A DNA stretch of 64,000 bases. Source: Panorpa germanica (taxonomy: Eukaryota; Arthropoda; Insecta; Mecoptera; Panorpidae). The notes beneath the pieces were generated by a model. The model searched no databases. It had not been told where the DNA came from and worked only from the letters and a program-made list of their open reading frames with translations. Of the stretch, positions 40,487 to 49,331 are shown one piece after another (position 1 is the first letter of the stretch; each line of letters begins with the position of its first letter). The stretch spans positions 1,922,001 to 1,986,000 of the forward strand of contig OY783205.1 in NCBI GenBank assembly GCA_963678705.1, in the 5' to 3' direction. Both the position numbers and the translations under genes were made by a program.

Positions 40487-40535
<49 letters not shown>
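40475..40535. repeat. (TA)n tract, left of LTR element
   Basis: About 60 bases of near-pure TA repeat ending at the 5' LTR. The tract resumes immediately after the 3' LTR at 44165-44201, so the element inserted into it. Confidence 0.9.
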
Positions 40536-40539
<4 letters not shown>

Positions 40540-41176
40540 GAAAGAAAAAATATATCGAGCATACAAAATAGGCGTAACTATAATACCCGGTCTAAGAAAG
40601 TCATAAAGAATGTGATTAATGACGGTATGTTTTAAATAGAAACCAAGTGACAGGTTAAAAGCAATTATAATGTGTGGAACTTTAAACCACTGAGTGAATA
40701 CATGAGGGGATGTGTTTATTGAAACAAACCAGGCATATTCTGGGAAGTAATAAAAACAAACCTTTTTAAGTCAAGCTGAAAACTAATGTAGAACTGAGTA
40801 TATATTAACTAGAATTTAAGGTTGTTTATGCATTCATTGTTTTGTATTTGTAAAGTAAACACCAACGTTTATATTGTATCTTTATTGTATTATTATCATT
40901 ATTATTATCATCGTTATTATTTTATTCAATAAATGTATTAAACCAATTATGTGATTCTTTATCATCCTGACAAACTAACTAAGATATTACATAGTTGAAT
41001 ATTAATTGAATTGACATTGCCCTAAATTAAACAAGAGTACCTTGATTCCACACCAGATTAGCGGATTGGTTATTGTTTTCCACATAAGAAGTTGGATAGT
41101 TCTCGTTTTCCACATCAGAGGTGGCATTGTACTCTCGTTTCCACATCAGAACTGGGATTGTACTCTCGTTTCCACA
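40536..41176 (+). repeat. 5' LTR (641 bp)
   Basis: Starts TGTGGAAAGAAAAAATATAT, ends CTCGTTTCCACA, with an internal AATAAA (TTCAATAAATG) near 40928. Its first 100 bases are the same sequence that encodes the C-terminal end of the ORF in the 3' LTR. Confidence 0.93.
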
Positions 41177-41210
41177 TCAGAAGTGCGATTGAGCTCTCGT
41201 TTTCCACATC
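41074..41210 (+). repeat. 31-32-bp tandem units spanning the LTR/leader junction
   Basis: Units of the form GTTTTCCACATCAGAAGTGG + ATTGTACTCTC occur about four to five times. The LTR end at 41176 falls inside one unit, so the array is partly LTR and partly leader. The 3' LTR contains only the LTR part. Confidence 0.8.
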
Positions 41211-41374
41211 AGAAGTGCGGATTAGCAGCTCATAGCGAATTGAACTAAGTGCGCGAAGTGAATAATACAAAGAAGTGCGGATTAGCAGCTCATAGCGAAT
41301 TGAACTAAGTGCGCGAAGTGAATAATACAAAGAAGTGCGGATTAGTAACTCATAGCGAATTGAACTAAGTGCGG
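41211..41374 (+). repeat. 60-bp tandem repeat in the leader
   Basis: Two identical 60-base units start AGAAGTGCGGATTAGCAGCT at 41211 and 41271. A third partial unit at 41331 carries a few changes. It lies between the LTR and the ORF and may be part of the RNA leader; a packaging role would be speculation. Confidence 0.9.
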
Positions 41375-41571
41375 ATTAGTTATCTACGAGTTATACACAA
41401 GTGAATAATACAGAGAAGAATAATACAAGATAGTTTTCTACAAACAGTGCTTTCAAGTGATAGTTCATTAGCGGAATAGTCGAGAATTTATAAGACGGAC
41501 TTTATAATAGGACTAGCAAGTGAATTGTATCAGAAAAGTGTGTAAACTGTTTTACGAGGAGAAAATTGAAA

Positions 41572-43623
41572 ATGGCATACAACGTAAACATGAACGATAC
41601 TACTGTGGAAGATAGTTTGTTAGCTGGACGCTCAGGTAACTCAACATCTAATGAAGATAGTTGGTTGGGAGTACAAGCAGAGCTGACGAGGCTTAGAACA
41701 GAACTATTGCAGTTGAGTATCGGGAATAGTACAATACAGGAACAGAGAATGAATCATCATGGGTTTATGCCGACACAGAACCTGGAATGCATACCTGTGT
41801 TTAACCCAGCAACCACGGTATTGACGGCTACAGCTTGGGTGCGAAAATTGGAGGATATAGCAGACATTTATGGCTGGAGTGATAAAGTGAAGCTTCATCA
41901 AGGTGTCAACAAGCTGCAGTGTGCCGCGAAAAACTGGTTTGATGCTAGTTTGAACGTAGTCAAGGATTGGACGACGTTCAAATACGAATTAATCAGGAAT
42001 TTTCCAGTGGAGTACGATGAATCTGACGTACACATGGAACTAATGAAGAGACAACGAGAAAAAAACGAAGCAATAGAAGATTATGTATACTCGGTGAAAG
42101 CGATCGCCAGTAGGAGTGATAATATCAGTGAAAAGGCCGTGATAAAATACATAATAGCCGGACTAAACAACAAAGACTTGATAAGTGTGTTATCAATGTG
42201 TGACTTTAAAACAGTGCCTGATTTGTTGTTAAAAGTAAAACGGTATGATTCGACGCTATTGCAAGTGCAAGAAAGGAATCATTTTAGTGTACGTAAAGAC
42301 AGACCAAAAGACTTAAACGCGATAAAATGTTTTAATTGTAATGAACTCGGACATAAAGAAAACGTGTGCCGAAAAAGCAACGAATACCTTAATAGTAAAA
42401 GAAATGAATCAAGTGAAAAGATAAAAAGTGAAAGTAAAATAAAGTGTTTCAAATGTCATGAAGAGGGACATATTTCGAGAAATTGTACCGCGAATAAAAC
42501 AAGTGATGCTTTGTTAGTGGACACAAATAAAACCTGTAATATGACAAAAGACATGAGCATAGACAGTATCAGTTTTAAATGTCTGATTGATACCGGAAGT
42601 GATCAGAATTTGATTAGAGCTGACGATTATATTAAATTAAGTAATAAAGCGGTTGTGCGCGAAAATAATATTGTATTGACTGGAATCGGAGGATTTCAAA
42701 TCAAAGTTTTAGGTGAATTTAGTGCTCAAGTGAAAGTAGACAATGAACAGTACTGTACTAACTTTTTAATAGTTCCATCAAGTACAACTAGACATAGTGT
42801 TGTAATCGGTAAACCTCTGCTAGATCAAGTAGAAACTATAATAAGCGTAGACGGTATTACCATGCGAGAAAAGTACGTGGAAAGTAAACAGTATAAAAAA
42901 TTAGGTGTAGCCGACGACGAAATCGTCATGGGTAATAACATTAGTCCAGGTGCCAGGGCTAAAGTTGAGGAACTAGTTAAAACTTATGAACCAAAAGTAA
43001 CAAGGGTTACTGAAGCAGCAGAAATATACATGACCGATGAGGTTCCTGTTTTTCAAAATTCGCGACGTATGGCTTACTGCGAACAAGAAGAAGTTAATCG
43101 AGAAATGCGTGAGGACGATTTGCAAGAGTTACGTGCTAACGACAAGAAACATATATTAAAAACACAGGAAGAGAATCGCAAGAATTTCAATAGAAATAGG
43201 AAACCAGCTAGGACATACAAAGTCGGGGACATTGTAGCTGTAAAAAGAACTCAGTTTGGTACTGGATTGAAATTGCATAATAAATATTTAGGACCGTATC
43301 AAATTACAGGAGTTGACCCAAATGAACGGTATAGGGTAAGACGTATCGGTGAAGGGGAAGGTTCTTTTAATACACACTCAAGTGCAGACCACATGAAGCC
43401 ATGGGGTGTGTTCTCAGACGACAGCGATTCTGAAACTGGAAATGTTGTGTCAGATGCCGAACAGCAAACAGATGACCGCAGTGACGTATCGTCTTTGGAG
43501 GCCAAAGAGGAGTCATATGGCCGTGTGGAAAGAAAAAATATATCGAGCATACAAAATAGGCGTAACTATAATACCCGGTCTAAGAAAGTCATAAAGAATG
43601 TGATTAATGACGGTATGTTTTAA
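41572..43623 (+). CDS. Gag-protease fused in frame to integrase C-terminus (683 aa)
   Basis: The first ATG is at 41572. Residues 1-240 are a Gag-like region, including an RNFPVEYDESDVHMELMKRQ block. Two CCHC zinc knuckles start at residue 253 (C-x2-C-x4-H-x4-C, CFNCNELGHKENVC) and 292 (CFKCHEEGHISRNC). An aspartic protease has its active-site LIDTGSDQ with the Asp near residue 340, and VVIGKPLL further on. Next comes the start of the reverse transcriptase region (VPVFQNSRRMAYCEQEEVNR). At about residue 512 the frame jumps to the end of integrase: a KKHILKTQEENRKNFNR helix and a GPY/F-type module (KVGDIVAVKR, YLGPYQITGV). RT, RNase H and the integrase core are missing, yet the frame is intact. 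The last 33 codons lie inside the 3' LTR. Confidence 0.85.
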   Translation: MAYNVNMNDTTVEDSLLAGRSGNSTSNEDSWLGVQAELTRLRTELLQLSIGNSTIQEQRMNHHGFMPTQNLECIPVFNPATTVLTATAWVRKLEDIADIYGWSDKVKLHQGVNKLQCAAKNWFDASLNVVKDWTTFKYELIRNFPVEYDESDVHMELMKRQREKNEAIEDYVYSVKAIASRSDNISEKAVIKYIIAGLNNKDLISVLSMCDFKTVPDLLLKVKRYDSTLLQVQERNHFSVRKDRPKDLNAIKCFNCNELGHKENVCRKSNEYLNSKRNESSEKIKSESKIKCFKCHEEGHISRNCTANKTSDALLVDTNKTCNMTKDMSIDSISFKCLIDTGSDQNLIRADDYIKLSNKAVVRENNIVLTGIGGFQIKVLGEFSAQVKVDNEQYCTNFLIVPSSTTRHSVVIGKPLLDQVETIISVDGITMREKYVESKQYKKLGVADDEIVMGNNISPGARAKVEELVKTYEPKVTRVTEAAEIYMTDEVPVFQNSRRMAYCEQEEVNREMREDDLQELRANDKKHILKTQEENRKNFNRNRKPARTYKVGDIVAVKRTQFGTGLKLHNKYLGPYQITGVDPNERYRVRRIGEGEGSFNTHSSADHMKPWGVFSDDSDSETGNVVSDAEQQTDDRSDVSSLEAKEESYGRVERKNISSIQNRRNYNTRSKKVIKNVINDGMF

Positions 43624-44160
43624 ATAGAAACCAAGTGACAGGTTAAAAGCAATTATAATGTGTGGAACTTTAAACCACTGAGTGAATACATGAGGGGATG
43701 TGTTTATTGAAACAAACCAGGCATATTCTGGGAAGTAATAAAAACAAACCTTTTTAAGTCAAGCTGAAAACTAATGTAGAACTGAGTATATATTAACTAG
43801 AATTTAAGGTTGTTTATGCATTCATTGTTTTGTATTTGTAAAGTAAACACCAACGTTTATATTGTATCTTTATTGTATTATTATCATTATTATTATCATC
43901 GTTATTATTTTATTCAATAAATGTATTAAACCAATTATGTGATTCTTTATCATCCTGACAAACTAACTAAGATATTACATAGTTGAATATTAATTGAATT
44001 GACATTGCCCTAAATTAAACAAGAGTACCTTGATTCCACACCAGATTAGCGGATTGGTTATTGTTTTCCACATAAGAAGTTGGATAGTTCTCGTTTTCCA
44101 CATCAGAGGTGGCATTGTACTCTCGTTTCCACATCAGAACTGGGATTGTACTCTCGTTTC

Positions 44161-44164
<4 letters not shown>
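43524..44164 (+). repeat. 3' LTR (641 bp)
   Basis: Same length and, on reading, same sequence as the 5' LTR. The ORF enters it in frame and stops at 43623. Confidence 0.93.

Positions 44165-44201
<37 letters not shown>
44165..44201. repeat. (TA)n tract, right of LTR element
   Basis: Continuation of the TA repeat into which the LTR element inserted. Confidence 0.9.
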
Positions 44202-46411: not shown

Positions 46412-49331
46412 TTAAGTATTTCTCCGCTTCATCGTACTCGTATGTGAGTACGAGAATGTTACTTTTATGTTTGTCAGCAATACTCCATGAGGAATGCACA
46501 TAGTTTCGGTAATGCGCCAATAATGCTGCGGAATTTTAGCACAATTAAATAGGGATCAAAAATACCGTAATATCCTACAGAATTCAAGATAGTGTCATTA
46601 CGGCATACATAAGTAACAAACAAGACAAACTGTATGCTACTTCCCAGATGTGGTGAATTCGTGTACTATGCTGATCCATTATAACAGCATTACCTGCAGA
46701 TATGTCTCTAACGACAGTTCGGTCATTCCGCTTGCTTTTAGAGTGAGGTCCACCTGGGCGTAAGCCATCGACAACAAAACTGATCTCTGGTCTTCAATGT
46801 TAAGGTCATACCATTTGTTATTGTACAGGTCAAAGGAAAATTCACTTATCTGTAAATACATATCAAGTATTAATATACACCGCGCCCACCGCCTAATCCG
46901 CCTCTTTTATAAAATTGTTTACAACAAGGTACTTACTTTGTTTTTCAAAATTTCGCCGTAGAAACAATACAGGCAAAGTTGAAGCATGACAGACAACGCA
47001 AATGTCAACATTTTGGAATTGTTATTTGTGGCCATAAACAGAGATGTGGAAATCAATAAGAAACTGCTCGAAAATTGAACTAACAGTATTTTTGAAAATG
47101 TCTTGTTAATTATCTTGATGACCCTGAAACAAATTGTTATTCTCCTATTATTTATTTATTCTTATGAAGTTAAGATATTAATATATGATTAAAAATAGCG
47201 TAACTTAGCTATTTCCTTATTCGAAGATAAAATTTAACTCGTTACAAAAAGATATACGTAAAGAACTTAAAAAGTTTGGGCTGCTGTTTCTCACTTGGCT
47301 ACAACTTCTTGTCAACCACGTCTAAACAAGTATAACTTCATTAAATTTATACATTCGCGTCCTTGTCTGATGAACGGTGTGTCCTCTAACACTCTCTCGC
47401 TCTTATATATCTTTAGCTGTTAGCAACCTCCACTTGCAGGCACATAAGCAACCGTATTATATTGTGTAGAGATAGAAATTAGCTTCAATGCAGCCATATT
47501 TTGATACCGTATTTCTTTAATAATAATTATCTATAAAAATTGTATTTTGATTTAAAATACACATGGATGTAGTAACTACTTAATCAGATCTTAGACTCTG
47601 AGAAATGAATGATTACATTTAACCTGAACTTAGTTATAATAATTTCAATGTAAATACGATTTTGACAACATGGTCATGTTAGTAGAAAATCGTCCAACCA
47701 TAGACCACTTTTTGATTATTTAATCACTTCAATGGGACTATTAACCAGTGGCGTAGCTAGGTAACCAAAAGCCACGGTGCAAAAAGAAACTGTGGCCCTA
47801 ACTAAACTGTTGAGGTTTTATCAAGTCAAAATATATATATAAGAGTAATTCATAAAATGTTTCACTCATGTAAATCAGATCTCTTCGATCACGATCATTG
47901 TTCGCAAGACTCAGCAATACGGCCACCGGTTATTACTGCATACCTCACAACAATGGTCTATCTTCGATAAATCTAAATCTAAACTATTCTTTTTATAAAA
48001 TGAAATAAACACTGTGATTTCTCATAAGCCTCAATGTTAAATTAAAAAATTCAAAGTTCAATATATTTTAACTGGTTCTCCGCAGTTTTTCTAAAATTTA
48101 ACGAGATCATTAATTATTAATATGCCAAATTTTAGAAAATATTAAACGGTAACTCTCTGACCTGAGTACTACCTTAAAATCGTGTTGCAACCTATTTTAT
48201 TTACATTCCAAAGGTGGGAGAATTTTTAGCTAGTACAATACGAGGTTCACTGGTCAGGGTCGGAGGGCCGCCTGAGCTTGAGGGCCCCGGTGCCCAGCAC
48301 CGACTGGCCCATACCTAGCTACGTCAGTGCTATTAACATATATAGACTTTGAAATAAAGTTGAATTCGATTATTTTCTTTGTATAACGAATATAATGTTA
48401 ATAAGGTTGCCTATTTATTTTCATCAAAGTAAAACGAATGTTAATTATTGTAAAAAACATGCATACATTTCTGTAATACAGTACTAATATAAAGAACATT
48501 CCTTGTTCGTTTCTTCCTTGTTATTACTGTTTCAATGATCTTAAATGACATTCTTAAAAGGAATTCTCTAAGATTTAACTAGCAAAAATAAAAGTTTTAC
48601 CTGATTATGTTGCTATGCATTTCATAAATTTCTCTAAATTGCAGGTGTCGTTCTTCTTTAGATTCACCCAATTGCGTTACTTTATGCTTCATCACATTAA
48701 TTTGTAAGCAAACTTCCGCCACCAATAAAATAAAGATGGCGTCCATGCCAACTGTCAAATGCATGCACACCACTACTGTCAAAACGATAAAAACATAATT
48801 GACTACGTAATAAGGTTGTTCCAATGGCGGTCCAAGGGGAAGATAATATGCAAATGGTAAACTTCTCTCTGATTTGAATATTGGGCTTGTAAAGAGCAAT
48901 GTTAACGTTATCCAGTAGCAAGTTATCATGGTCACCATGCTCCAAGTTGGCCGCTTGATAAATATGGTATCTTCGTATTGTTTGTCTTCCTCTATGTCGC
49001 CCTGATATTTCGCTCGGAATGTTCTGAACTCCGTTACAAGGACAATGATGTCTTGGTAAACATATTGCAGAGCAATCAACTTGAACAAGTTTTGGTAGCA
49101 CCCTGCTGCAATCATCAACGCTTCTGACAACTCTACAAAGTTGTTGAAGTGGTAGTAGAAGGCAGTTGTTGTCGCTATTGGGGTCATGGCCATCAGCAAA
49201 GTCGCACAGAATCGTTTCACTTTGCTTTTGATGCCAACAGACCAGGACTCGCTTAATACCTCATAACCGCTAACGCATAATATTAGATTCACCGTGCTGA
49301 TGATGCTCTCCAACTCCTCGTGAGGGTGCAT
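46412..49331 (-). CDS. odorant receptor, insect 7tm_6 family (4 exons, about 395 aa)
   Basis: Exons in coding order: 49331-48601, 47123-46937, 46849-46694 and, less surely, 46525-46412. Introns are GT/AG and phases agree (2, 0, 0), giving 396 codons, the usual length for the family. Several hydrophobic helices are visible (ATLLMAMTPIATTTAFYY, VFIVLTVVVCMHLTVGMDA, ALSVMLQLCLYCFYGE). The family C-terminal signature is clear: FYGEILKNK, then DLYNNKWYDL, then LSLETYLQ. These proteins form ligand-gated cation channels with Orco in antennal neurons; the ligand cannot be read from sequence. The last exon ends VTFSYSHTSTMKRRNT, resembling the usual (T)SYSYFTxLRR tail, but carries a longer lead-in than normal, so its acceptor may be wrong. 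The style is that of lepidopteran receptors. The open frame at 48697-49101 is a shadow. Confidence 0.87.
47746..48329. mobile_element. non-autonomous hAT-like element in odorant receptor intron 1
   Basis: The ends CAGTGGCGTAGCTAGGTA and, reversed, CACTGACGTAGCTAGGTA differ at only two positions. A perfect 8-bp direct repeat, CTATTAAC, lies outside both ends (47738-47745, 48330-48337). This is diagnostic of an insertion of hAT type. The interior carries a half copy of the palindromic MITE E (about 47858-47930) and a GC-rich right arm (GAGGGCCCCGGTGCCCAGC). There is no transposase. Confidence 0.9.

What the first reader, a model, noticed from the sequence alone, without database searches (positions are those of the whole stretch)
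41572..43623. LTR element whose polymerase core was deleted in frame, leaving a Gag-protease-integrase-tail fusion
Sequence: two CCHC knuckles, the LIDTGSD protease, the first residues of the RT region, then a direct jump at about residue 512 to the integrase C-terminal GPY/F module, all in one open frame. Known: Ty3/gypsy elements need RT, RNase H and integrase core between these parts. Inference: the fusion is a non-autonomous derivative that still makes structural protein and protease, plus the integrase end that can contact chromatin or DNA. An in-frame deletion kept open suggests that it may spread as a coding parasite of a full-length relative, or be on the way to co-option.
Basis: partly seen in the sequence, partly recalled or inferred. 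Interest (0 to 1): 0.72.

Follow-up and report, generated by a model that had tools for sequence, protein, structure and literature searches.

The report
Pol-deleted Gag–protease retroelement, recently amplified
This is one of more than two hundred copies of an insect LTR retroelement that lost its polymerase and integrase core but kept an open Gag–protease–integrase-tail gene, and that most likely moves by borrowing enzymes from a few full-length relatives in the same genome.

Summary
The element spans 40536-44164: two identical 641-nt LTRs around one open frame (41572-43623, 683 aa) with Gag capsid, two CCHC knuckles, protease, the start of RT, then an integrase GPY/F tail.

It is no one-off. 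The same genome holds 53 places with this junction (type A) and 182 with a second in-frame junction (type B), against 17 places with the RT of a close relative. Pieces of one relative carry both arms of the repeat 703 codons apart, a matching LTR start and a TA-run target. LTR pairs are identical in 16 of 41 loci; 38 of 38 mapped LTR starts follow TA runs.

Best reading: a TR-GAG-type non-autonomous derivative, comparable to mouse IAP 1-delta-1, made by template switching and mobilised in trans. Gag and protease look conserved and the scar neutral, but recombination means this does not prove selection on deleted copies. Co-option is unlikely. Expression and mobility were not testable.

The parts
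40488..40535 (.). (TA)n microsatellite, left flank / target site
   Evidence: alternating TA run of 48 nt left of the element
40536..41176 (+). 5' LTR, 641 nt, TGTGGAAA...TTTCCACA
   Evidence: 100% identical to the 3' copy (coordinates)
41046..41223 (+). six tandem units of about 31 nt, TTCCACA(T/C)(C/A)AGA..., spanning LTR end and primer site
   Evidence: offsets 510-666 from the element start; repeat D3
41177..41194 (+). putative primer-binding site TCAGAAGTGCGATTGAGC (one of several tandem copies)
   Evidence: directly follows the 5' LTR; a 20-mer complementary to the commoner unit form TCAGAAGTGGGATT occurs 12 times exactly in the genome; tRNA identity not confirmed
41211..41390 (+). 60-nt tandem repeat in the leader, two exact copies and a third at 73%
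   Evidence: repeat D4
41572..43623 (+). single ORF, 683 aa: Gag - CCHC x2 - protease - RT start - integrase tail
41917..42168 (+). Gag capsid domain (PF03732)
42328..42489 (+). two CCHC zinc knuckles
42556..42837 (+). aspartic protease (LIDTGSD)
   Evidence: RVP E 0.014, below the curated cut-off
43021..43086 (+). first residues of the RT region
   Evidence: comparison with the RT-bearing relative and, weakly, other gypsy-type elements
43087..43095 (+). deletion junction GAAGAAGTT; the RT-bearing relative has two copies 2,109 nt (703 codons) apart
43120..43332 (+). integrase C-terminal GPY/F module
   Evidence: match to the Ty3 integrase tail in 7q5b
43524..44164 (+). 3' LTR; contains the last ~33 codons of the ORF
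44165..44201 (.). (TA)n microsatellite, right flank

Best explanation
A non-autonomous LTR retroelement of Ty3/gypsy type. A single-frame Gag-PR-RT-IN element lost the stretch from the start of RT to the end of the integrase core when reverse transcription jumped between two copies of GAAGAAGTT 703 codons apart (type A; a separate in-frame junction gives type B). The shortened RNA keeps LTRs, primer site, Gag and protease. I infer that it is translated into Gag-PR-IN-tail, packaged together with RNA of full-length relatives, reverse-transcribed and integrated into TA runs by their RT and integrase, and recombines with other copies on the way. Shown: anatomy, copy numbers, young LTR pairs in the loci examined, target, existence of RT-bearing relatives, recombination. 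Inferred: translation, packaging, template switching as the cause, and mobilisation in trans.
For: 53 A-junction and 182 B-junction places at up to 3 mismatches, reversed-pattern controls 0; LTR pairs identical in 16 of 41 loci examined; 17 RT places at 96-100% protein identity to the relative's RT, 4 more at 73-87%; the relative has an RT with YMDD, both repeat arms, IN-core end and tail in the same frame, and an LTR start TGTGAAACGT after a TA run; 38 of 38 mapped LTR starts after alternating TA runs; recombination between A and B.
Against: No RNA, protein or mobility data. The relative was read only in four pieces of 110-549 bases; RNase H and the integrase catalytic core were not read, and its own open frame around RT is 1086 aa, shorter than a complete Gag-to-tail frame. 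Only its first 10 LTR bases were read. Target-site duplications cannot be seen inside TA runs. The 41 loci were chosen by high protein similarity, so youth and openness are biased upward.
Confidence: 0.87

Rival explanations
1. Division of labour: the deleted copies are not mere parasites but supply surplus Gag and protease to a single-ORF master that otherwise makes Gag and Pol one to one, so the pair works as a two-component element.
For: The relative's PR, RT and IN pieces lie in one frame, and 2 of 17 RT places sit in open frames of 1392 aa, so no frameshift seems to separate Gag and Pol; 235 deleted places against 17 RT-bearing ones; low omega in capsid and PR (0.2-0.4 by the counts).
Against: No stoichiometry data; low omega may come from recombination with full-length copies; a parasite that simply packages well would give the same counts.
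Confidence: 0.2
2. Neutral passenger: the deleted RNA is mobilised in trans and its protein is irrelevant; the frame looks conserved only because Gag-PR and tail are refreshed by recombination with functional copies.
For: In a seven-copy B subgroup codons 440-737 show 4 changes (N 3, S 1) while CA+PR (383 codons) shows 48 (N 26, S 22), so the 5' half is imported; all four gametes in 4,865 of 7,750 site pairs, Rm 34, among 16 copies.
Against: Deleted copies are the great majority of the pool, so refreshment should come mostly from other deleted copies; both junctions that were seen to spread are in frame (one frame-breaking further deletion, L058, was seen once among the 26 places).
Confidence: 0.3
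3. Host co-option of the Gag-PR-IN-tail protein.
For: Open frame with low omega in capsid, PR and tail.
Against: 235 junction places; the loci examined are LTR elements in TA runs, many with identical LTRs, the window copy included.
Confidence: 0.03
4. Assembly collapse of a full-length element.
For: None found.
Against: Same junction at 53 places on many contigs, another at 182, RT-bearing relatives assembled in the same genome.
Confidence: 0.01

Closest known systems
TR-GAG elements (plants)
   Same: LTRs plus a Gag (or Gag + protease) frame and no RT/RNase H/IN; Inpactor files elements with only GAG, or GAG and AP, there (PMC6022998, passages). A TR-GAG was seen to transpose in Arabidopsis ddm1 and resembles a potentially autonomous element (PMC8704663, passages).
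   Different: This one keeps an integrase tail fused in frame, is in an insect-type genome, and comes in two amplified junction forms.
Mouse IAP 1-delta-1
   Same: A deletion in gag-pol creates a fusion protein; young and prolific; [quoted passage not shown]
   Different: An endogenous retrovirus; by the passages its fusion is Gag-Pol and helps in cis. Here RT beyond its start and the IN core are gone and only the IN tail is kept; no cis effect was tested.
CM-gag of Culex pipiens
   Same: Reiterated insect element said in its title to contain only a gag gene (title seen in the reference list of PMC3286476).
   Different: The paper itself was not seen; structure and any full-length relative were not compared.
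Gypsy-superfamily elements of Drosophila with ATAT/TATA targets
   Same: ATAT or TATA target motifs, mostly with 4-bp duplications (PMC3276498, passages).
   Different: Here insertions lie in longer alternating TA runs, median 25 nt on the left side; duplication length unknown.

Membership tests
LTR retrotransposon | paired direct LTRs with TG...CA ends | tested here: met
   641-nt identical LTRs, TGTGGAAA...TTTCCACA
LTR retrotransposon | target-site duplication | tested here: inconclusive
   flanks are TA runs, so a duplication cannot be told apart
LTR retrotransposon | primer-binding site next to the 5' LTR | tested here: inconclusive
   TCAGAAGTG... follows the LTR but without a leading TGG; GGTTCGAATCCCACTTCTGA occurs 12 times exactly and once with one mismatch, control 0; the tRNA gene could not be fetched
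Ty3/gypsy (Metaviridae) | Ty3-type RT in the RT-bearing relative | tested here: met
   L089: RVT_1 E 1.7e-37; best solved structure Ty3 RT, E 4.2e-34
Ty3/gypsy (Metaviridae) | RT, RNase H and integrase core in this element | tested here: not met
   absent in the window ORF; it is a derivative, not an autonomous member
TR-GAG | Gag or Gag+protease frame between LTRs, no RT/RH/IN domain | tested here: met
   Pfam finds Gag and CCHC above cut-off and RVP below it, no RT/RH/IN; an integrase tail is present but only as weak matches
TR-GAG / IAP 1-delta-1 type | full-length relative in the genome | tested here: met
   17 RT places at 96-100% identity, 2 of 17 in open frames of 1392 aa; one relative read in four pieces
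IAP 1-delta-1 type | mobilisation in trans demonstrated | not testable with these tools
   no expression or mobility data
co-opted gag gene | single locus without LTR mobility | tested here: not met
   235 junction places, identical LTRs at this locus

The most novel reading that the evidence does not exclude
A two-component retroelement in which the abundant deleted copies serve as dedicated Gag-protease suppliers for a rare single-ORF master, solving the Gag:Pol ratio problem between elements instead of by frameshift or splicing, with the retained integrase tail adding to assembly or to targeting of TA microsatellites.
Probability: 0.15. Interest if true: 0.75.

Novelty: new variant of a known kind. 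Interest (0 to 1): 0.5.

Why it matters
The Gag-only or Gag-protease LTR elements listed by my TR-GAG searches are from plants. Here an insect-type genome holds two in-frame polymerase-less forms at 235 places against 17 places with the related RT, with a likely parent form, a deletion repeat and recombination all readable from sequence. That makes it a good natural system to ask whether Gag-coding parasites persist because their protein helps, or only because their RNA is packaged.

Tried and rejected
Tried and led nowhere: viral-contig scan with the protein alignment (43 stretches matched a pattern, none a relative by tblastn). The top-scoring gypsy-type RT families of the genome were tested as possible masters by eight 701-base pieces and rejected: six match only around residues 484-513 with E 0.04-0.28, plus trivial hits, and two (L074, L075) do not match. 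No tRNA gene in the window. Literature: searches for non-autonomous Gag/protease LTR elements in Hymenoptera and for in-frame deleted LTR elements with six terms returned 0 papers of the held library; searches for LTR insertion into microsatellites gave no clear precedent in the listings. PF00665 in the own genome and an integrase-end pattern did not complete and were dropped.

Considered and rejected: assembly collapse; co-option; B as the necessary ancestor of A (the relative itself carries both arms of the A repeat, so A may have arisen directly). My first target-site count (39 of 39 located of 41) demanded TATA at both ends in its end-finder and is circular; it is replaced, which has no flank condition. 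The low omega was at first read as selection on deleted copies; searches show recombination, so that claim is left undecided.

Full report
What is there. The frame at 41572-43623 is open for 683 aa and contains a Gag capsid domain, two CCHC knuckles and an aspartic protease with LIDTGSD that scores below Pfam's cut-off. The tail has no Pfam hit above cut-off, but a profile of five copies matches the integrase C-terminal region of the Ty3 polyprotein in 7q5b (E 0.029) and the single sequence weakly matches SH3_Tf2-1 (E 0.09). The whole element is larger than the finding: two identical LTRs of 641 nt, 40536-41176 and 43524-44164, with TGTGGAAA / TTTCCACA ends, set in a TA microsatellite. The ORF runs about 33 codons into the 3' LTR.

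Not alone. The window's own genome (464 Mb, 249 contigs; an insect to judge by the odorant-receptor gene nearby) was searched with the protein: 65 copies were scored of 2,561 candidates, 31 with the same continuous junction (type A, window included) and 34 with extra residues there (type B). Forty further copies were fetched, 20 of each class. All 20 A copies show the A junction, with one-residue variants in a few, and all 20 B copies the B junction. B reads ...EEVEKHVETWLNDGKVEEQALNKTYQRSINTTPFKLLTG..., RT start joined to what the relative shows to be sequence just upstream of the same tail (TTPFKMLTG); that it is the end of the integrase core is my reading, Pfam does not flag it. Whole-genome pattern counts at up to 3 mismatches: 53 for the A junction, 182 for the B junction, 199 for the RT-start 33-mer, 284 for the protease active-site 34-mer; reversed-pattern controls are 0 in all four. 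Of the 100 listed RT-start places, I fetched 26 whose type was unknown (20 absent from the list, 6 without a listed B junction): all 26 are B or B-derived, and one (L058) has a further deletion that shifts the frame.

A full-length relative. 284 minus 182 minus 53 leaves roughly 49 protease places with neither junction (the probes differ, so this is approximate). I looked at six: five are diverged B copies and one continues into RT. The next 549 bases at that place encode an uninterrupted RT with YMDD, RVT_1 E 1.7e-37, best solved relative Ty3 RT (E 4.2e-34). Further small pieces show an LTR start, TGTGAAACGT, directly after a TA run and 1,906 nt before the protease motif (B copy L029: 1,928), and sequence upstream of the tail plus the tail itself in the same frame as RT. 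The RT frame is also the protease frame (C7:2117928 to 2118552 is 208 codons). RNase H and the integrase catalytic core were not read, and this place's open frame around RT is 1086 aa, shorter than a complete frame would be. With this RT as query, 17 places have 96-100% identity (some of them partial matches), 4 have 73-87%, and the other listed matches are at most 54% except one 85-residue match at 66% (150 of 1,795 candidates scored). Two of the 17 lie in open frames of 1392 aa, close to 683 + 703, so intact-looking single-frame copies exist. Deleted places thus stand to RT places about 235 to 17.

How the deletion arose. The relative carries GAAGAAGTT twice, in EEVEKH at the RT start and in LEEVNREM before the tail, 2,109 nt (703 codons) apart; the window junction has one copy, and from there the window matches the relative's downstream arm at 94 of 100 bases. 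This is what a template switch between short direct repeats would leave (inference). Type A can come straight from a full-length copy; B need not be its ancestor.

Age and targets. In one search clean LTR pairs are 97.4-100% identical and 16 of 41 loci have no mismatch (L026 is cut by a contig end; for L037 and L045 the top self-match was not the LTR pair; in L015 and L047 it covers only part of the LTR). One search placed LTR starts by internal self-alignment with no flank condition: a pair in 40 of 41 loci, 38 starting with TGT; in L015 and L047 the alignment starts inside the LTR because one LTR has an internal deletion. All 38 follow an alternating TA run of at least 5 nt, 37 of at least 7, 30 of at least 12, median 25; at window positions 100-40400 the shares are 0.75%, 0.09% and 0. 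TA runs of 12 or more make up 0.6% of 73 kb of outer flanks. An earlier count was circular and is dropped. Drosophila gypsy-superfamily elements have ATAT/TATA target motifs (PMC3276498, passages), so the preference is of a known kind, though the TA runs here are long.

LTR end and primer site. Units of about 31 nt, TTCCACATCAGAAGTG..., are repeated across the LTR end (two to six found per copy by the pattern), and the LTR ends at different units: 641 nt in the window against about 605-616 in many copies. The primer site seems to exist in tandem and the LTR end to shift by a unit (inference). The 20-mer GGTTCGAATCCCACTTCTGA, complementary to a frequent unit plus a recalled T-loop, occurs 12 times exactly and once with one mismatch, control 0, as a tRNA gene family would; I recall it as leucine tRNA but could not fetch a gene. 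The usual TGG start is missing. A Culex mdg3-type element has a Leu primer site (table passage, PMC3286476). The clade of the present element is not determined.

Selection and recombination. For one search, 35 of 41 copies were used (18 of 21 A, 17 of 20 B); L020, L024, L040, L042 and L046 were dropped for early stops in the translated slice and L027 because the script saw no stop in its slice, so L027 and probably L042 (trimmed start) were dropped needlessly. Pooled pN/pS is 0.20-0.22 in capsid, 0.26-0.29 in protease, 0.31-0.42 in NC, 0.27-0.42 in the tail, 0.58-0.63 in the C-terminus, and 0.91-1.27 in the PR-RT linker and B scar. Unique-change counts are less clear: in all A and all B copies the linker gives 0.53 and 0.79, not different from 1 (p 0.07 and 0.76), and NC in A is 0.60 (p 0.16). 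In the 16 copies with identical LTRs, CA+PR has 37 nonsynonymous to 43 synonymous changes (omega 0.22) against 23 to 5 in linker plus scar (1.2; Fisher p 0.001); the tail is 42 to 27 (0.42; Fisher p 0.057 against linker plus scar). This looks like conservation of Gag and PR, but it cannot be pinned on the deleted copies. A/B differentiation is 0.01 in capsid and 0.03 at the C-terminus, 0.10-0.18 between PR and junction, and 0.29 just after the junction; 4,865 of 7,750 site pairs show all four gametes, Rm 34. An A copy (L012) carries a B-type tail, and seven B copies that are nearly identical over codons 440-737 differ by 48 changes in CA+PR. Gag-PR is thus shuffled among copies, possibly including full-length ones. 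Such recombination is what co-packaging of these RNAs would produce, which the model needs.

Reading. The best-supported account is a non-autonomous Ty3/gypsy derivative mobilised in trans, comparable to plant TR-GAG elements (PMC6022998 and PMC8704663, passages) and mouse IAP 1-delta-1, where a deletion creates a Gag-Pol fusion that helps in cis but still needs Gag and Pol in trans (PMC7411935, passages). A Gag-only mosquito element, CM-gag, is known to me only from a reference title. Distinctive here are the retained integrase tail, two amplified in-frame junctions, the ratio to RT-bearing copies and the TA-run targets. Expression, protein, packaging and mobility remain untested.

Noticed in passing
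window 41046-41223 and the LTR ends of L009-L048: Tandem ~31-nt units carry both the LTR end and the primer-site motif; the LTR end differs by whole units between copies, as if priming can start at different units.
   Followed up: partly
window 41211-41390: 60-nt tandem repeats in the leader between primer site and ORF.
   Followed up: no
window 48597-49331 (-): ORF matching 7tm_6 odorant receptor (E 3.3e-16), which suggests an insect host.
   Followed up: partly
own genome: Other gypsy-type families with open frames of about 1,100-1,390 aa and many equal-scoring RT copies; the genome seems to have much recent LTR activity.
   Followed up: no
L058 (C2:11069437): A B-derived copy with a further deletion that ends near the same GAAGAAGTT arm and shifts the frame.
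   Followed up: partly
L015, L034 and L045: A second LTR of the family lies about 20-100 nt from the element in each, as if one TA run had been hit twice.
   Followed up: no
codons 267-293 of the ORF alignment: The stretch between the two zinc knuckles is among the most variable parts of the frame (diversity 0.09-0.12).
   Followed up: no
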